Below are positions 5,061 to 10,772 of a stretch of DNA of 10,772 nt, piece after piece. The notes below the pieces were generated by a model. It saw only the letters and a program-made list of their open reading frames with translations. It was not told the DNA's origin and did not search any database. The position numbers were made by a program, and so were the translations under genes. The DNA is from Thermomicrobiaceae bacterium (GTDB lineage: Bacteria > Chloroflexota > Chloroflexia > Thermomicrobiales > Thermomicrobiaceae): positions 1-10,772 of the forward strand of contig SKTL01000021.1 of NCBI GenBank assembly GCA_007122555.1, given 5' to 3'. The stretch's first letter is position 1. Each line of letters opens with the position of its first letter.

Positions 5061-6617
5061 ATGCGAGGACCCTTCAAGACCGAGCAGCCGCTCGATTTCT
5101 CGATTCCCGAGAACGAGCAGGGCATACGCGAACAGATCAAGAAGGTCGAAAAACAGCTCGGCAAGGAATGCCCGCTAGTTATCGGGGGCGAAGAGCGCAC
5201 GACCGGGAACTGGATCACCTCGATCAACCCGGGAAACACCGATCAGGTGGTCGGCAAGGTCGCCAAAGCAGGCAAGAAGGACGCGGAAGACGCGATCAAG
5301 GCGGCAAAGAAGGCGTTCAAGACGTGGAGCCGGATGTCCGCCACCGCGCGGGCGAGCGTCCTCTTCAAGCTCGCCGGGATCATACGCAAGAACCGGCTTG
5401 AGCTCGATGCCTGGCTCGTCTACGAACTGGACAAGCCATGGGACGAAGCGGACGGCGAAGTGGCCGAAGCGGTCGATTTCCTGGAGTGGTACGCCCGCCG
5501 GGCGCTCGATCTCGAGAAACCGTACGATCTCGCCAGCCACCCCGAGGAAGCGAACGAGCTGCTGAACCGACCGCTCGGTGTTGGCGTGGTCATTCCGCCC
5601 TGGAACTTCGCCTGCGCCATCTACACAGCCCTGACGATGTCCGGCGTTGCGGCTGGAAACTGCGTCGTGCTCAAGCCAGCCAGCAACACCCCGGTCGTCG
5701 GCTACCGAATCTTCCAGATGATGCAGGAAGCCGGAGTGCCGGATGGCGTCGTCAATTTCCTGCCCGGTTCCGGCGACGAAGTCGGCGATACGCTCGTCGA
5801 GCACCCGGAGACGCGTTACGTGGCGTTTACCGGTTCCAAGGACGTCGGCGTCCGGATCTACGAAAACGCCGCCAAAGTCCAGCCGGGACAGCGCTGGCTC
5901 AAGCGCGTTGTCGCCGAAATGGGCGGCAAAGACGCGATCATCGTCGACAACGAAGCGGATCTCGACGCCGCGGCCGACGGCATTGTCTCCGCCGCGTTCG
6001 GATTCGCCGGTCAGAAGTGCTCCGCCTGCTCGCGGGCGATCATCCATCAGGATGTCTACGACGAGGTCGAAAAACGTGTTGTCGAACTGGCGAAACAGAA
6101 CGTCAAACTCGGAAACGCCGCCGAAGGGAACTACACGCTCGGCGCGGTGGTCGACGAAAAGCAGTACAAGCAGATCCTCGACTACATCGACGTCGGCAAG
6201 AACGAGGGCAAGCTGCTGCTCGGCGGCGGCAAGGCCGAGGGACGCAACGGCTACTACATCGAGCCGACCATCTTCGGCAGCGTCGACCGCACGGCGCGGG
6301 TCGCCTGCGAGGAGATCTTCGGCCCGGTCCTGGCGCTGGTCAAAGCGAAGGATTACCAGGACGCGCTGGACATCGCCAACGATTCCGAATACGGGCTGAC
6401 CGGGTCGGTCTACTCGAAGAACCGGGAGAAGCTGGAACAGGCCCGGTACGAGTTCGACGTCGGCAACCTGTACTTCAACCGGAAGTGCACCGGATCGCTG
6501 GTGGGGATTCACCCGTTCGCCGGCATGAAGCTCTCCGGGACGAATTCCAAGGCTGGCGGCCCGAACTACCTGATGAACTTCGTCGAAGAGAAATCCGTTT
6601 CCGAGGTGGTGGGGTAG
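5061..6617 (+). CDS. rocA: 1-pyrroline-5-carboxylate dehydrogenase (L-glutamate gamma-semialdehyde dehydrogenase)
   Basis: This 518-residue NAD-dependent aldehyde dehydrogenase oxidises glutamate-5-semialdehyde, in equilibrium with P5C, to L-glutamate. It is the second step of proline degradation in the cytoplasm. The length matches the Bacillus RocA type (about 515) rather than the bifunctional PutA fusion. Visible motifs are VVIPPWNFACAI (177-188), LKPASNTPVVG (204-214), FTGSKDVGVRIYE (256-268), AEMGGKDAIIVD with catalytic Glu286, FGFAGQKCSACSR with catalytic Cys320, and EEIFGPVLAL (417-426). The N-terminal 50 residues including LVIGGEERTTG are typical of the P5C dehydrogenase branch. Proline dehydrogenase, the enzyme of the preceding step, is encoded 203 bases downstream on the same strand, which supports the substrate call. 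The Asp-box protein gene ends 91 bases upstream. Whether it shares the transcript is unknown. Confidence 0.96.
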   Translation: MRGPFKTEQPLDFSIPENEQGIREQIKKVEKQLGKECPLVIGGEERTTGNWITSINPGNTDQVVGKVAKAGKKDAEDAIKAAKKAFKTWSRMSATARASVLFKLAGIIRKNRLELDAWLVYELDKPWDEADGEVAEAVDFLEWYARRALDLEKPYDLASHPEEANELLNRPLGVGVVIPPWNFACAIYTALTMSGVAAGNCVVLKPASNTPVVGYRIFQMMQEAGVPDGVVNFLPGSGDEVGDTLVEHPETRYVAFTGSKDVGVRIYENAAKVQPGQRWLKRVVAEMGGKDAIIVDNEADLDAAADGIVSAAFGFAGQKCSACSRAIIHQDVYDEVEKRVVELAKQNVKLGNAAEGNYTLGAVVDEKQYKQILDYIDVGKNEGKLLLGGGKAEGRNGYYIEPTIFGSVDRTARVACEEIFGPVLALVKAKDYQDALDIANDSEYGLTGSVYSKNREKLEQARYEFDVGNLYFNRKCTGSLVGIHPFAGMKLSGTNSKAGGPNYLMNFVEEKSVSEVVG

Positions 6618-6623
6618 ACGCAC

Positions 6624-6675
6624 TCACCCCTCCGGCCCCTCTCTCCCAAAACTGGGAGAGGGGGAGCGGGGGTGA
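6624..6675. repeat. GC-rich palindromic element just after rocA (REP-like; may terminate transcription)
   Basis: The core is a perfect 8-bp stem (6641-6648 with 6653-6660) closed by an AAAC loop and extended by pairs to 6637/6664. An outer 7-bp stem (TCACCCC 6624-6630 with GGGGTGA 6669-6675) encloses it across a short internal loop. It starts 7 bases after the rocA stop. The C-rich/G-rich arms with a CTCTCCCA/TGGGAGAG core look like dispersed intergenic palindromes seen in several bacterial phyla including Chloroflexota (from memory). There is no T-run after it, so a classical intrinsic terminator is not certain. Confidence 0.75.
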
Positions 6676-6747
6676 TGGCGAACATCAACATCTACCAGCA
6701 AGTCTTGCAGCGTGCAGGGTCGCACGACTCTGTGAGACCGGTTCGGA

Positions 6748-6782
6748 CCGACAGTATCGTCGGCCCCTACGAATGTAGAGGC
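6748..6782. repeat. Second pair of intergenic palindromes between rocA and the proline dehydrogenase gene
   Basis: Two inverted repeats are adjacent and overlap by one base. CCGAC (6748-6752) pairs with GTCGG (6759-6763) around a 6-base loop. GCCCCTAC (6763-6770) pairs with GTAGAGGC (6775-6782) around GAAT with one mismatch. The second resembles the arms of a known kind of dispersed repeat (CCCCTACGAATGTAGGGG-type) with one arm degenerated. Because they share base 6763 they could form mutually exclusive hairpins. Confidence 0.55.
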
Positions 6783-6806
6783 TCGCCGGGGCATCGGGCA
6801 CACCGA

Positions 6807-6813
6807 GAAGGGA
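6807..6813 (+). promoter_or_regulatory. Shine-Dalgarno GAAGGGA that fixes a TTG start for proline dehydrogenase
   Basis: GAAGGGA ends 7 bases before the TTG at 6821. No in-frame ATG with such a site exists before the conserved domain begins. Confidence 0.7.
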
Positions 6814-6820
6814 ACCAGGT

Positions 6821-7804
6821 TTGTCGTCCAACGGTCAGGGACCGATTACAGAGCCAGCCGACGGACGCTGGTCGTCAATCAACGGCATCTTCCGCAAGGG
6901 CATCCTGCTGGCGACCAGCAACCGGCTTGTCTCCAGCGGTGTCAAGCGCTTCGGCATGCGGCTGGGAGCCGGAAACTTCGTCGCCGGGGAAGACCTCGAT
7001 GCGTGCATCCAGGTCCTGAAAGCGCTGACAGATCGCGGCTTTCACACCAACACGACCCTGCTCGGAGAGCACGTGACAGACGAGCAGATGGCGTCCGACG
7101 TCGCCAGCGAATACATCCGGATCCTCGACCGCATCGATCAGGACGAATGCCGGACCAACATCGCCCTGAAACTGACCCATCTCGGACTCGATCTCGGCGA
7201 AGAGGTCGCCTATCGCAACGTCGAGCGGATCGTCACCCACGCCGAAACACTGGGCAACTTCATCCGGATCGATATGGAAGAGTCGGACCGGGTCGATCCC
7301 ACCATCCGCATCTTCAAACGGCTCCGCGCTGAGGGTCTGGAGAACGTCGGGACGGTCTTCCAGTCCTACCTCTACCGGACAGACGACGACATCAAGAACC
7401 TGCTCGACCTCGCCCCGAACCTGAACCTCCGCATCGTCAAGGGCGCCTATCTGGAGCCAGCCAGCGTCGCCTACCCGGAGAAAGTGGATGTGGATCGCAA
7501 GATGATCGAGCAGATCGAGACGCTGCTGGACAACGACTGCTACGTCGGCATCGCCACGCACGACGACCGGATCATCGACCACTTCAAGGAATACACCGAG
7601 CAGCACGGCATCGGACGAGACCGGTTTGAGTTCCAGATGCTCTATGGCATCCGCACCCAGTACCAGCAGGAACTGCTCGATGAAGGCTACAAAGTGCGCA
7701 TCGCCACCCCGTTCGGCCCCGAATGGTACCCATACCTGATGCGCCGCCTGGCCGAACGCCCGGCCAACCTGCTCTTCCTGGCGAAGAACGTCGTGCGGCG
7801 GTAG
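6821..7804 (+). CDS. putB: Proline dehydrogenase, monofunctional
   Basis: This 327-residue FAD enzyme oxidises L-proline to 1-pyrroline-5-carboxylate, passing electrons to the quinone pool. It performs the first step of the pathway completed by rocA just upstream. The size fits stand-alone PRODH of the Bacillus/Deinococcus kind (about 300-330), not PutA. Conserved blocks appear in order: LLGEHVTD (80-87), ALKLTHLGLD (115-124), IRIDMEESD (148-156), VFQSYLYRTDDD (179-190), RIVKGAYLEP (204-213), GIATHDDRII (243-252), EFQMLYGIR (270-278) and TPFGPEWYPYLMRRLAERPAN (296-316). The last block carries the substrate-contacting YxxRR-type element. The start is a TTG backed by a strong ribosome binding site. 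The 203-base spacer after rocA holds several palindromes, so coordinated but unequal expression is possible. No signal peptide or membrane span is seen; peripheral membrane association is typical of the family. Confidence 0.95.
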   Translation: MSSNGQGPITEPADGRWSSINGIFRKGILLATSNRLVSSGVKRFGMRLGAGNFVAGEDLDACIQVLKALTDRGFHTNTTLLGEHVTDEQMASDVASEYIRILDRIDQDECRTNIALKLTHLGLDLGEEVAYRNVERIVTHAETLGNFIRIDMEESDRVDPTIRIFKRLRAEGLENVGTVFQSYLYRTDDDIKNLLDLAPNLNLRIVKGAYLEPASVAYPEKVDVDRKMIEQIETLLDNDCYVGIATHDDRIIDHFKEYTEQHGIGRDRFEFQMLYGIRTQYQQELLDEGYKVRIATPFGPEWYPYLMRRLAERPANLLFLAKNVVRR

Positions 7805-7944
7805 CTGCTCGATTCATACCCGGTCGAAATTCTCTGTGGTTTCCCCGAAGTACCCCTGAGGGTCGCCCTGTCCTTTGAACTCACTCAGGACATTGTCACG
7901 CTGTCAAGCTCCTGAGGTCATGAATCCAAGTGCGATGCGTACTA

Positions 7945-7984
7945 TTGCATTCTTCCTATCCACGCATTAGACTGTACATACAGT
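7945..7984 (+). promoter_or_regulatory. Candidate promoter with overlapping palindromic operator
   Basis: TTGCAT and TAGACT with 17-base spacing form a mediocre sigma-70-type promoter. The perfect palindrome ACTGT-acat-ACAGT (7971-7984) overlaps the -10 box and the expected start point, a usual place for a repressor site. Confidence 0.35.
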
Positions 7985-8061
7985 GCAAAATCGCGGTATC
8001 TGTGCACGTTTGCCCGAGGTGCTGCAGGTCAGTATCGCTGGCAACGCTCCGGGATTATTCG

Positions 8062-8081
8062 AACATTGGTGAAACAATGTT
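8062..8081. promoter_or_regulatory. Perfect 7-bp inverted repeat, operator or small hairpin
   Basis: AACATTG (8062-8068) and CAATGTT (8075-8081) are perfect inverted copies around GTGAAA. Only two further T bases follow, and the stem is AT-rich, so it is a weak terminator. A protein-binding site in the leader is as likely. Confidence 0.35.
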
Positions 8082-8198
8082 TTCTCCCTGGACAACGAGG
8101 CAAAGGCTGTCGACATTTTGCGGCGTTTTTCGTACTTCGTCCGTAGTCCGAGGCGCCAACTGGAGACATCGACGTAGCTATCGCTTATCCGCCTGATC

Positions 8199-8202
8199 GG
8201 AG
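8199..8202 (+). promoter_or_regulatory. Shine-Dalgarno GGAG that fixes a TTG start for the ice-binding-like protein
   Basis: GGAG ends 7 bases before the TTG at 8210. Starting there gives a complete signal peptide with Arg6 and Arg9 before the hydrophobic core, whereas the next in-frame ATG would cut into it. Confidence 0.65.
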
Positions 8203-8209
8203 ATCCAGA

Positions 8210-9601
8210 TTGGTCATCTTTAGCAGACTTATTCGCCCGGTAACCATCATCGGCGTTGCGGTGCTGATGGTCCTGGCGGCAAGCGCATATCCAGGCATCG
8301 GAACTGCTCAGATCGCCCCGAACCTCGGGACAGCGGAAAGCTTCGCGGTTCTTGGCGGCCAGTCAGTGACGAACACTGGCCCGAGCGTCATTCACGGAGA
8401 TCTTGGCGTCAGTCCGGGGAGTTCAGTCACGGGCTTCGACGACCCAGGAGGGCCAGGAATTGTTAATGGAACGATTCATATCACAGATCAGGTTGCGGGG
8501 CAGGCACAGGCAGACGCCCTCCAGGCATATAACAGTCTTGCGGGACAGGCGCCGACCCAGGATTTGACTGGCCAGGATCTGGGCGGGTTGACGCTCACTC
8601 CCGGCGTTTACAGTTTCTCATCGACTGCGGGATTGACCGGTGAGTTGACGCTCAACGCCCAGGGCGATCCCGCCGCAGTGTGGATCTTTCAGATCGGAAG
8701 CGGGCTCACGACCGCCACCGACTCTTCCGTTACTGTTATCAATGGATTTACGAATTCTCACTGCAACGCCTTCTGGCAGGTTGGTAGCTCGGCTACGCTT
8801 GGAACGAACACCTCGTTCCAGGGGAGTATTATCGCGGACGCAAGTATTTCGCTGGTAACCGGAGCCACGATCGACGGAAGAGCCCTGGCGCTAAACGGCA
8901 CCACAAGTCTGGACACCAACGAAATTGACAGCCTGGAATGCTTGACGCCGGTCGACGACGACACTGTTTCCGACGATACTCCGTCCGATGACACGGTTTC
9001 CGACGATACTCCGTCCGATGACACGGTTTCCGACGATACTCCGTCCGATGACACGGTTTCCGACGATACTGTTTCCGACGATACTGTTTCTGACGACACC
9101 GTTTCCGACGATACGGTTCCCGTTGACGACACCGCTCCTGTCGATGACACCGACGACACGGTTCCTGTCGACGACACCGCTCCTGTCGATGACACCGACG
9201 ACACGGTTCCCGTTGACGACACCGCTCCTGTCGATGACACCGACGACACGGTTCCTGTTGACGACACCGCTCCTGTCGATGACACCGACGACACGGTTCC
9301 TGTTGACGACACGACGCCAGTCGATGACACCGACGATACGGTTCCTGTTGACGACACCGCTCCTGTCGATGACACCGACGACACGGTTCCTGTCGACGAC
9401 ACCGCTCCTGTCGATGACACCGACGATACGGTTCCTGTTGACGACAATGGGAAGATTACATTCCCCAAGACAGGTACTGCGGGATTTCTGGGAGATGGCT
9501 TCGAGCGGGTAATCGCTCCATCCAGTCTCCTGCTCGCCGCCGTCGTGCTGCTGGTCGGCGCCGGAGCGTATCTCCAGACGAACCGACATCGCTACGAGTA
9601 A
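8210..9601 (+). CDS. Sortase-anchored ice-binding-like (DUF3494) surface protein with Asp-rich repeat stalk
   Basis: The 463-residue protein has four parts. Residues 1-26 form a signal peptide (hydrophobic about 11-26, A-S-A cleavage site; a later site near Ala33 is possible). Residues 39-244 form a complete DUF3494 ice-binding-like domain: LGTAESFAVLGGQSVTNTGP, GDLGVSPGSSVTGF, AQADALQAYNSLAGQ, TPGVYSFSSTAGLTGELTL, AVWIFQIGSGLTTA, FWQVGSSATLGTNTSF and GATIDGRALALNGTTSLDTN. Residues 247-412 form an extremely acidic Asp/Thr/Val/Pro/Ser repeat stalk. FPKTG (418-422), a hydrophobic span (about 440-456) and the tail TNRHRYE form an LPXTG-type sorting signal. It should be exported, cleaved between Thr and Gly and attached to the cell wall, most likely by the sortase encoded next. 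The family includes proteins that bind ice or act as adhesins; ice binding is not proven here. Cys185 and Cys244 are the only cysteines of the domain and could form a disulfide. Confidence 0.93.
   Translation: MVIFSRLIRPVTIIGVAVLMVLAASAYPGIGTAQIAPNLGTAESFAVLGGQSVTNTGPSVIHGDLGVSPGSSVTGFDDPGGPGIVNGTIHITDQVAGQAQADALQAYNSLAGQAPTQDLTGQDLGGLTLTPGVYSFSSTAGLTGELTLNAQGDPAAVWIFQIGSGLTTATDSSVTVINGFTNSHCNAFWQVGSSATLGTNTSFQGSIIADASISLVTGATIDGRALALNGTTSLDTNEIDSLECLTPVDDDTVSDDTPSDDTVSDDTPSDDTVSDDTPSDDTVSDDTVSDDTVSDDTVSDDTVPVDDTAPVDDTDDTVPVDDTAPVDDTDDTVPVDDTAPVDDTDDTVPVDDTAPVDDTDDTVPVDDTTPVDDTDDTVPVDDTAPVDDTDDTVPVDDTAPVDDTDDTVPVDDNGKITFPKTGTAGFLGDGFERVIAPSSLLLAAVVLLVGAGAYLQTNRHRYE
8971..9060 (+). repeat. Three identical 30-bp tandem repeats in the stalk
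   Basis: 8971-9000, 9001-9030 and 9031-9060 are base-for-base identical and encode the DDTVSDDTPS unit. They are followed by four shorter 15-bp variants (9061-9120) encoding SDDTV-type units. Perfect identity over 90 bases implies recent duplication or gene conversion. Confidence 0.97.
9119..9433 (+). repeat. Seven 45-bp tandem repeats in the stalk
   Basis: Seven copies of the 15-residue unit PVDDT-A-PVDDTDDTV (residues 304-408) follow each other without gaps. The fifth has Thr instead of Ala. Copies differ at silent positions (GTC/GTT, GAC/GAT), so they are older or more diverged than the 30-bp set upstream. All unit lengths are multiples of three, so copy-number change keeps the frame. Confidence 0.97.
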
Positions 9602-9641
9602 CGTACACGTCCATGATGAGTATGTAGCTGGATGTTGAGGC

Positions 9642-9665
9642 GGGGCTCCCGTTTTCGGGAGCCTC
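9642..9665 (+). terminator. Strong GC-rich hairpin between surface protein and sortase genes
   Basis: A 10-bp stem (9642-9651 with 9656-9665, one G-T pair) closes on a TTTT loop. It is followed by TTCAAC rather than a run of T, so termination may be partial. It lies 40 bases after the stop of the surface protein gene and ends 26 bases before the sortase start, where it could attenuate sortase expression or protect the upstream message. Confidence 0.6.
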
Positions 9666-9679
9666 TTCAACAACCAGCC

Positions 9680-9684
9680 GGAAG
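9680..9684 (+). promoter_or_regulatory. Shine-Dalgarno GGAAG that decides the sortase start
   Basis: GGAAG ends 7 bases before the ATG at 9692. The alternative in-frame ATG at 9632 has no such site, and its extra 20 codons would run through the terminator-like hairpin. Confidence 0.65.
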
Positions 9685-9691
9685 ATCACAT

Positions 9692-10579
9692 ATGTCCACC
9701 GCGCCGCGCAACGCGAGACAATCCGGGATTACGGCCTTCCAGTGGGTGGCTGGATTATCGCTGCTCATCGGAATCGGTGCGGGCGCGATCGTGCTCGTCA
9801 TTTTGTTCAGTAACGCTCCTGCGCCGGCAGAAAGCTCACTCGTTCAAGGCCCAGTAAGCAGCACAGCAACCTCTGAACCGACCGATCAGGCCCTCCTGGC
9901 GGCTAACGACGAACCGTCAGAGAGCACTGGTGCGGAGACTCCGGAGGACACGCCCGCCAGCACCCCGGACACTGCAGAGCCCAACGTTGAACCGACCCCG
10001 GAGAGTGACAGCGCGACGTTCGCAGAGTCTCCGCCTGCAACAGCGACGGCGACTTCAGAATCTGAATCCTCCGGGAGTGAGGTTCAGGACGTCTCCGAAT
10101 CCGGGACGTCTGATCCGGCCGCACCAACCGGTTCGAACAAACAGACGACGCGGATCGAAATTCCGGCGATCGGAGTTGACGCTCCCGTCGAGGTCAAGAG
10201 CATCGATGACAACGGCGTTATGGAAAATCCGAGTTCATCGGAATCCGTTGCCTGGTACGACTTCACCGCTCGCCCGGACGATCAGGGCAATGCGGTCTTC
10301 GCGGGTCACCTCGACTATGATGGGGTAGGCCCCGCGGTGTTCTGGGAACTTGGGTCAGTGTCGCTCGGTGACGAGGTCAACGTAACCCAGGGGGATGGCA
10401 GCATCATCAGGTACCGGATTACTGGGGTTCGGTCAGTTCCCGCGGACGCCGACGCCAGTAATATCGTCGCCACAGGTGACGTCGCAAAGATCACGATTAT
10501 CACCTGCGACGGAAGTTTCGATCCCTCCAGCCAGGAGTACGATCAACGCATCGTCGTGACAGGCGAGCGAGTCGGGTAG
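9692..10579 (+). CDS. Sortase, class E/F type, membrane-anchored
   Basis: The 295-residue protein has a short basic N-terminus, one membrane span (about residues 14-38), a long Ser/Thr/Glu/Pro-rich linker (about 41-150) and a C-terminal sortase domain (about 155-295). The domain begins IEIPAIGVDAPVEVKSI and contains GNAVFAGHLDYDG with His206, ITIITCDGSFD with Cys272 and YDQRIVVTGER with Arg286, the His/Cys/Arg set of sortase transpeptidases. The short catalytic domain, and the IEIPAIGVDAPV and AGHLD segments, fit the small class E/F sortases better than class A or C. It should cut the sorting signal of surface proteins at the membrane outer face and join them to a peptidoglycan precursor. The FPKTG protein encoded 90 bases upstream is the obvious substrate. 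The long acidic linker is unusual for a sortase and may hold the catalytic domain away from the membrane. Confidence 0.93.
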   Translation: MSTAPRNARQSGITAFQWVAGLSLLIGIGAGAIVLVILFSNAPAPAESSLVQGPVSSTATSEPTDQALLAANDEPSESTGAETPEDTPASTPDTAEPNVEPTPESDSATFAESPPATATATSESESSGSEVQDVSESGTSDPAAPTGSNKQTTRIEIPAIGVDAPVEVKSIDDNGVMENPSSSESVAWYDFTARPDDQGNAVFAGHLDYDGVGPAVFWELGSVSLGDEVNVTQGDGSIIRYRITGVRSVPADADASNIVATGDVAKITIITCDGSFDPSSQEYDQRIVVTGERVG

Positions 10580-10658
10580 AGATTCGTTTCGGGATTCCGC
10601 GCAACTCAGGCCCGGGTCGTGAGGGCATAGCGTGGTGCGGATCGGATGGAGCACTCGG

Positions 10659-10772
10659 CTACTCCATGAACGGGAGTTCAACCAACTCCGCCTCGGCCGT
10701 ACCCCGCGGATGCCTGACCCTGACGCTCGTACCGATGGCGACACTTGACCGAACGACCGCATAGCCGATCCA
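10659..10772 (-). CDS. C-terminal end of a GcvT-like (aminomethyltransferase / glycine-cleavage T) domain protein; runs off the right edge
   Basis: The minus strand is open from the window edge to a TAG at 10659-10661 and encodes 37 residues. They read IGYAVVRSSVAIGTSVRVRH...AEAELVELPFME, which matches the end of the GcvT C-terminal beta-barrel, usually (L/I)GYA.V....... G..v.v..rg....a.vv.lPF. The same domain ends glycine-cleavage T-protein, YgfZ-type proteins and dimethylglycine or sarcosine dehydrogenases, so the exact enzyme cannot be told from this piece. It converges with the sortase gene, and the 79 bases between them hold no clear terminator. Confidence 0.72.
   Translation of the reverse strand, partial: WIGYAVVRSSVAIGTSVRVRHPRGTAEAELVELPFME

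What the first reader, a model, noticed from the sequence alone, without database searches (positions are those of the whole stretch)
8210..10579. Self-contained cassette: ice-binding-like head on an Asp-repeat stalk plus its own sortase
The sequence shows a signal peptide, a complete DUF3494 domain, an acidic repeat stalk and an FPKTG sorting signal, followed at once by a sortase with all three catalytic residues. DUF3494 proteins are best known as secreted ice-binding proteins or adhesins. A copy wall-anchored by a neighbouring class E/F-type sortase would be a distinct way of displaying this fold, particularly if the host is a member of Chloroflexota. The pair may be a mobile surface-display module for adhesion, ice or another repetitive surface.
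Basis: partly seen in the sequence, partly recalled or inferred. Interest (0 to 1): 0.7.

Follow-up and report, generated by a model that had tools for sequence, protein, structure and literature searches.

The report
DUF3494 surface protein with own sortase
A bacterium related to Thermomicrobium carries a surface protein built like an ice-binding protein beside the enzyme that probably fixes it to the cell wall, and in distant cousins the two are joined into one protein that holds both the attachment tag and the enzyme that should read it.

Summary
ORF 8210-9601 encodes a signal peptide, a full DUF3494 domain (PF11999, 207.7 bits), an Asp-repeat stalk, FPKTG, a hydrophobic stretch and a basic tail. 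ORF 9692-10579 encodes a membrane-anchored, class F-like sortase with His, Cys and Arg. A strong hairpin lies between them.

The pairing exceeds chance: a same-strand sortase lies within 3 kb downstream of DUF3494 at 6 of 11 places in the class (0.03 expected) and 12 of 80 in the phylum sample (0.16 expected; two of the 12 doubtful). Five Actinomycetota loci show it. Most DUF3494 genes still lack a sortase neighbour.

Beyond the window, 44 of 120 listed homologues of one fused protein have both domains in one polypeptide. In 136 of 140 sortase-bearing proteins examined, an xPx[TS]G motif precedes the sortase, with no membrane segment between. In genome G430 (97% complete) the fused protein is the only sortase found. 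This suggests a self-sorting protein, biochemically untested.

'Mobile' is not supported: the DUF3494 gene sits beside the same proline dehydrogenase gene in four same-genus genomes. Ice binding is untested. Best reading: a dedicated adhesin-sortase pair, a new variant of a known kind.

The parts
8210..9601 (+). DUF3494 surface protein: signal peptide, DUF3494 head, Asp-repeat stalk, FPKTG sorting signal
   Evidence: PF11999 207.7 bits; anatomy from the translation
8240..8290 (+). hydrophobic core of the signal peptide
   Evidence: sequence
8324..8944 (+). DUF3494 (Ice_binding, PF11999) head
   Evidence: PF11999 profile positions 1-207 of 208; closest solved chains by sequence 6eio (165.9 bits) and 5uyt (154.8 bits)
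8948..9450 (+). Asp-rich repeat stalk: 30-nt and 45-nt tandem units, no Lys or Arg
   Evidence: tandem repeats; composition
9461..9475 (+). FPKTG sorting motif (LPKTG in L169 and L170, FPNTG in L171)
9521..9598 (+). hydrophobic stretch and basic tail of the sorting signal
   Evidence: sequence
9634..9671 (+). intergenic hairpin without a T run; a hairpin of different sequence is at the same place in G107 and G110, not in G106
   Evidence: folds, alignment
9692..10579 (+). class F-like sortase: N-terminal membrane segment (9737-9808), S/T/P/E-rich stalk, catalytic domain 10133-10576 with His 10307-10309, Cys 10505-10507, Arg 10547-10549
   Evidence: PF04203 76.7 bits; NCBIfam; alignment A3; AlphaFold model, mean pLDDT 90.9, with sortases as best PDB matches

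Best explanation
A dedicated adhesin-sortase pair. The DUF3494 protein is exported and held in the membrane by its hydrophobic tail. The neighbouring class F-like sortase, itself membrane-tethered on a flexible stalk, cuts FPKT|G through Cys272 and joins the Thr to a cell-wall acceptor, so that the DUF3494 head stands out on a long, highly acidic stalk. Shown by sequence: all parts, their order, the catalytic residues, and recurrence of the pair. Inferred: cutting at FPKTG by this enzyme, the wall acceptor, and the role of the head (binding a regular surface or polymer, ligand unknown). In some Chloroflexota the same relation has become one polypeptide, head-linker-LPxTG-sortase, in which the enzyme carries its own candidate substrate.
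For: Pfam and anatomy. Neighbourhood: a same-strand sortase within 3 kb downstream at 6 of 11 DUF3494 places in the class (3 of 6 genera with DUF3494) and at 12 of 80 in the phylum sample (11 of 55 genomes), against 0.034 and 0.157 expected. Of the 80 kept loci, 11 have one directly downstream or fused, 5 of them Actinomycetota. Joint absence: G109 (98% complete) lacks DUF3494, and its seven sortase matches to the window enzyme are 28-40% identical, against 65-69% for the partners in G107 and G110. Fusions: 44 of the 120 proteins listed carry both Pfam domains; an [LVIF]Px[TS]G motif just before the sortase in 136 of 140 proteins, against 10 of 419 control windows. Paired and fused sortases lie on several branches of the tree, so the link arose more than once. 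Only one Lys in the window's mature protein before FPKTG, 3 residues from it, which favours wall anchoring over pilus building here.
Against: No biochemistry. G000 has three further sortases that might cut FPKTG. Most DUF3494 genes have no sortase neighbour: 5 of 11 and 68 of 80 without one, 69 of 80 (by my own profile); some are near contig ends. Of the 12 phylum pairs, G347 looks frame-damaged and G344's sortase is under the Pfam cut-off. G090 and G100 have sorting signals but no neighbouring sortase. Of 39 Chloroflexota DUF3494 proteins checked, 14 have xPxTG-like plus hydrophobic tail, 7 a hydrophobic tail only, 13 neither (one of these is the fused G430 protein), 5 are cut (rough patterns). 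The paired proteins of G084 and G085 are among the 'neither'. In four Actinomycetota partner sortases (L105, L135, L141, L155) the residue aligned with the catalytic Arg is Asn, so their activity is less sure. Head and sortase distances correlate only modestly (r 0.33, 2 of 5000 permutations, 22 pairs), partly through species kinship. The hairpin could limit co-transcription.
Confidence: 0.77

Rival explanations
1. Another sortase of the cell anchors the DUF3494 protein, and the neighbour is a chance or unrelated gene.
For: Three other sortase genes in G000. Anchor-type DUF3494 proteins of G090 and G100 have no sortase next to them.
Against: More neighbours than chance; repeated independent pairings; natural fusions.
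Confidence: 0.12
2. The sortase polymerises the DUF3494 protein into a pilus, as class C enzymes do.
For: The top five Foldseek matches of the window model are class C structures, at 16-21% identity, with class A, D and E close behind. Lys is present in some other paired or fused proteins (0 to 19 before the motif).
Against: In the window, G107 and G110 the mature protein has one Lys before the motif, 3 residues from it. The anchor scan of L001 and L002 (window 6848-10772) gave no second credible sorting signal.
Confidence: 0.05
3. The head is an ice-binding adhesin that holds the cell to ice.
For: The nearest solved relatives by sequence are named antifreeze or ice-binding proteins. The nearest named record probably comes from a southwestern Siberian lake; that such lakes freeze is my inference.
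Against: Same domain in many actinobacteria such as Streptomyces; NCBIfam ice-binding equivalog 81 bits against a cut-off of 400; no ice-specific evidence for this host.
Confidence: 0.15
4. A mobile surface-display cassette.
For: Patchy presence: 10 of 158 genomes in the class.
Against: Same place beside proline dehydrogenase in G000, G107, G108 and G110; no mobile-element family among the Pfam hits of the 7 window proteins scanned.
Confidence: 0.05

Closest known systems
AbpA-SrtB adhesin-sortase pair of oral streptococci (PMC4974636, passages read)
   Same: One adhesin gene beside one sortase that anchors it to the cell wall; shown there by experiment.
   [quoted passage not shown] another adhesin. 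The window has a DUF3494 head, an acidic stalk, a full sorting signal and a class F-like enzyme.
Fibrillar adhesin-like proteins with Ice_binding as adhesive domain (PMC8286594, passages read)
   Same: PF11999 is in that paper's set of adhesive domains; adhesive domain, stalk and sortase motif is the general plan.
   Different: The passages seen treat single proteins and give no DUF3494-sortase gene pair or fusion.
DUF3494 ice-binding proteins of the central Arctic Ocean (PMC9957290, passages read)
   Same: DUF3494 with other domains; one listed architecture carries the PEP C-term motif.
   Different: The paper has no 'LPXTG' and, as no held paper has both words, no 'sortase'.
Class F sortases (PMC13251363, passages read)
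   Same: Best NCBIfam match of the window enzyme; that paper says their physiological roles remain unknown.
   Different: The window enzyme scores under the class F cut-off.
Engineered self-cleaving sortase fusions: BISOP (PMC2901362) and STEPL (as described in PMC11561820); passages read
   Same: Sortase and LPETG in one polypeptide; the enzyme frees its own cargo. In STEPL the cargo is expressed as a fusion with sortase.
   Different: Man-made tools (BISOP has the sortase at the N-terminal end); the natural proteins have export signals and surface domains, and their activity is untested.

Membership tests
PF11999 Ice_binding (DUF3494) | Score over the Pfam cut-off, full-length domain | tested here: met
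   207.7 against 28.7 bits, profile 1-207 of 208
Ice-binding protein in function | Binds ice: thermal hysteresis or recrystallisation inhibition | not testable with these tools
   Needs purified protein; the NCBIfam equivalog IBP_CFB is under its cut-off, 81 of 400 bits
Sortase family PF04203 | Score over cut-off; His, Cys and Arg | tested here: met
   76.7 against 26.6 bits; His and Cys invariant in the 22 rows of A3; Arg present in the window but Asn in L105, L135, L141, L155
Class F sortase (NF033748) | Score over the curated cut-off of 166 bits | tested here: not met
   107.7 bits, the best of the classes listed
LPXTG-type wall-anchored protein | xPxTG, hydrophobic stretch, basic C-terminal tail | tested here: met
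   FPKTG, hydrophobic 9521-9574, NRHRYE tail; Phe instead of Leu at position 1
LPXTG-type wall-anchored protein | Covalent link to the cell wall | not testable with these tools
   Needs cell fractionation or mass spectrometry
Sortase-built pilus | Acceptor Lys in the subunit; a second pilin gene | tested here: not met
   One Lys, 3 residues before the motif; no second credible sorting signal in window 6848-10772
Mobile cassette | Different flanks in close relatives, or mobility genes | tested here: not met
   Same proline dehydrogenase neighbour in four same-genus genomes, the window's included
Self-sorting fusion (relatives only) | Sorting motif and sortase in one protein, motif conserved, no membrane segment between | tested here: met
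   136 of 140 with the motif; 0 of 136 with a membrane-like stretch between; control 10 of 419; 12 of 12 genome loci, one the query's own. The window itself is two genes.
Self-sorting fusion (relatives only) | The enzyme cuts its own motif | tested here: inconclusive
   AlphaFold model of the module: the first ten residues, which hold the motif, average pLDDT 55, residues 1-4 under 50; not docked with confidence

The most novel reading that the evidence does not exclude
Sortase and client were repeatedly brought together in Chloroflexota, as neighbouring genes (as in the window) and as one protein. In the fused form the sortase domain takes the place of the hydrophobic tail after LPxTG, so a surface protein carries its own single-use anchoring enzyme, cuts itself loose from it and leaves only the ectodomain on the wall. 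The same C-terminal module also ends giant surface proteins with open frames up to 3846 residues.
Probability: 0.5. Interest if true: 0.8.

Novelty: new variant of a known kind. Interest (0 to 1): 0.6.

Why it matters
Class F sortases have no known physiological role according to PMC13251363 (passages); a recurring client family would make that question testable. DUF3494 is mostly studied as an ice-binding domain; a wall-anchored form outside icy habitats would suggest a broader adhesive role. The fused form would be a natural counterpart of laboratory self-cleaving sortase fusions and a new way to anchor very large surface proteins.

Tried and rejected
Literature: 'DUF3494' with 'sortase' gave 0 papers in the held library; 'ice-binding protein' with 'sortase' gave 4 papers, 3 listed, none describing such a pair in the passages read. 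Searches for sortases of Chloroflexi and for natural sortase fusions showed no such fusion in the listings; of these I read passages of PMC2901362 and PMC4974636 only. Absence from this library is not absence from print.

Considered and rejected: intrinsic terminator between the genes (no T run; not in the scan); pilus building in this genus; mobile cassette. The apparent fusion in G347 (L158) is doubtful: the DUF3494 match stops early and the following letters look out of frame; it was described only. It is still one of the 12 and one 'fused' row.

Weak points of my counts. One search used places typed. Genomes of one genus are not independent: the class pairs stand for 3 genera, the phylum pairs for 9 of 41. 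The sortase profile used was built by me from 21 sequences and may miss other classes. One search left out three duplicates or near-duplicates (L011, L012, L023) and added 15 modules picked by hand; L160 is labelled 'other' there though its DUF3494 gene overlaps it. One search used 22 pairs; L158, the duplicates L011 and L012, and L037 (its DUF3494 piece too short in that locus) were left out, and L160 and L168 were not labelled as pairs. The motif screens are rough: for L001, L010 and L011 the printed match is a decoy, though FPKTG or LPKTG is there. The 140 proteins come from two searches seeded with fused proteins and listing the best 120 each, so they are not a random sample; the 4 without the motif are P0035, P0172, P0173 and P0204. 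Of 120 shorter proteins, 92 have the motif and 28 do not, 25 of these starting inside or close to the module; the 7 with a hydrophobic N-terminus all have it.

A survey of Actinomycetota genomes by the genome search was not possible.
Full report
WHAT IS THERE. ORF 8210-9601 is a 463-residue exported DUF3494 protein: signal peptide, complete PF11999 domain (207.7 bits), an Asp-rich repeat stalk (30-nt unit of 5.6 copies, 45-nt unit of 7.6 copies; 40% acidic, no Lys or Arg), then FPKTG, a hydrophobic stretch and NRHRYE. ORF 9692-10579 is a 295-residue sortase with an N-terminal membrane segment, an S/T/P/E-rich stalk and a catalytic domain with His206, Cys272 and Arg286. NCBIfam ranks class F first (107.7 bits), under its cut-off of 166. 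A model of the catalytic domain (mean pLDDT 90.9) matches sortase structures. One DUF3494 gene and four sortases were found in this incomplete genome.

BETWEEN THE GENES. The 90-nt gap folds into a strong hairpin (MFE -43.9 kcal/mol, z -5.75; 0 of 200 shuffles as low). G107 (z -1.94, 8 of 200) and G110 (z -3.31, 0 of 200) have a hairpin of different sequence at the same place; the G106 gap does not stand out (z -0.38, 59 of 200). No T run follows, so I read it as a possible brake or stability element that would give less sortase than substrate; this is inference.

THE HOST. CSSed names are used for Cock Soda Lake sediment, 55 g/L salt and pH about 9.9 (PMC6704655, passages; this MAG was not in the passages). 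The window's own origin is not given. Four other window proteins have pI 5.0-5.7, the head 4.05.

THE PAIR RECURS. In the class, 10 of 158 genomes have DUF3494, at 11 places. A same-strand sortase lies within 3 kb downstream at 6 of 11 (G000, G107, G110, G106, G084, G085; 3 genera), with 0.034 expected. G108's gene is cut by the contig end; G090, G100 and both G051 places have none. In the phylum sample of 400 genomes, 57 have DUF3494; without G000 and G110, 12 of 80 places in 11 of 55 genomes (9 of 41 genera) are paired, with 0.157 expected. Of these 12, G430 is a fusion, G347 is a doubtful one, and G344's sortase is under the Pfam cut-off. Of the 80 loci kept, 11 are paired or fused: six of the Chloroflexota side (L077, L088, L090, L097, L104, L152, of which L077, L097 and L152 match class contigs by length) and five Actinomycetota (L105, L121, L135 Rhodococcus opacus, L141 and L155 Nocardioides). 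Pfam confirms the sortases of L135 and L141. Four of the five carry YPRTG, HPETG, HPSTG or NPPTG near the C-terminus; in the partner sortases of these same four, Asn stands where the window has the catalytic Arg. The other 69 of 80 loci show no adjacent same-strand sortase by my profile.

NOT EVERY DUF3494 PROTEIN IS ANCHORED. Of 39 Chloroflexota proteins screened roughly, 14 have xPxTG-like plus hydrophobic tail, 7 a hydrophobic tail only, 13 neither (the fused G430 protein among them), and 5 are cut.

NOT MOBILE IN THIS GENUS. In G107, G108 and G110 the DUF3494 gene follows the same proline dehydrogenase gene as in the window (84-86% identity). G109 lacks DUF3494, has only a 44% proline dehydrogenase, and its sortases are 28-40% identical to the window's. 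So the block may have been gained or lost as a unit.

SORTASE HISTORY. In a tree of 71 sortase domains, starred branches force at least 6 changes of the label 'paired' and 3 of 'fused'. The window enzyme groups with those of G110, G107 and G106. Pairings in Actinomycetota, in family f31 and in G084/G085 sit on other branches, so the link arose repeatedly. Head and sortase distances correlate modestly (r 0.33; 2 of 5000 permutations; 22 pairs).

FUSIONS. Searching with the fused protein of G430 (L157), 44 of the 120 listed hits have both PF11999 and PF04203. A second search with the C-terminal region of one of them (P0035) lists the same module with many other precomputed Pfam domains, such as PF01833, PF01345, PF00082 and PF13229 (IPT/TIG, DUF11, subtilase and beta helix are names from recall). 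Of 140 proteins from both lists with a sortase domain, 136 have [LVIF]Px[TS]G just before it (LPxTG in 90), a median of 21 residues ahead of the profile start; control windows in the same proteins have it in 10 of 419; 0 of 136 have a membrane-like stretch in between; the Cys pattern is in 140 of 140, the His pattern in 137. The motif Pro and Gly and the following Phe are invariant in the 33-row alignment A2, as are His, Cys and Arg. In genomes, 29 of 400 from the phylum have the module at E 1e-20 or better (28 of 284 of good quality), with open frames up to 3846 residues; 12 of 12 loci checked have [LI]PxTGF before it. In G430 (97% complete) the fused protein is the only sortase match; the other 28 genomes have two or more.

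HOW IT LIKELY WORKS. Window: export, retention by the tail, cut at FPKT|G by the neighbour, transfer to the wall. Fusion: the module replaces the tail; the enzyme may cut its own or a neighbour copy's motif and be left behind. An autoinhibitory role of the motif is not excluded: the model leaves it undocked, and a solved sortase with a self-derived tripeptide exists (7f87, by its title). The head's ligand is unknown.

NOVELTY. Sortase-client gene pairs are known (AbpA-SrtB), and PF11999 is in a published set of adhesive domains. No paper in the held library has both 'DUF3494' and 'sortase'. The window is a new variant of a known kind; the fused form goes further and deserves its own test.

Noticed in passing
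L157 (G430:C27:1-5000), L088, L090, P0001-P0216: Natural proteins of the form ectodomain-linker-LPxTG-sortase in Chloroflexota and metagenomes, with many different ectodomains and open frames up to 3846 residues.
   Followed up: yes
L105, L135, L141, L155: In four Actinomycetota sortases next to DUF3494 genes, Asn stands where the window sortase has its catalytic Arg, while His and Cys are kept.
   Followed up: no
L172, L173 (G085, G084) and L008:7759-8862 (own genome): A repeat of the pattern ETG...FW..NGG...FG.P...YFER is shared by the DUF3494 C-terminus and the N-terminus of the adjacent sortase in G084 and G085, and by a sortase of the window's own genome; no Pfam family covered it in the two proteins scanned, the L173 DUF3494 protein and the L008 sortase.
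   Followed up: partly
L007:9665-11581 (own genome, C435): A second candidate substrate-sortase pair: a DUF4397 protein ending in PAGTG plus a hydrophobic tail, then a sortase.
   Followed up: partly
L006:8268-8873 (own genome) and L178 (G110:C43): Sortases whose N-terminus looks like a lipoprotein signal (LALSAC, VMVSAC, LLLSAC); two lie in tandem in G110.
   Followed up: no
L122, L126, L143: DUF3494 proteins of Nitrosospira, Methylobacter and a Methylococcales MAG end in VPEP-type tails like PEP-CTERM signals, so the same head is joined to different sorting signals in different lineages (the name PEP-CTERM for these tails is my reading).
   Followed up: no
window 5061-7804: L-glutamate gamma-semialdehyde dehydrogenase and proline dehydrogenase genes side by side, a proline breakdown unit, just upstream of the pair.
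   Followed up: partly
P0003, P0006, P0009: Source names 'type VI secretion system secreted protein VgrG' on DUF3494-sortase fusions look like misannotations.
   Followed up: no
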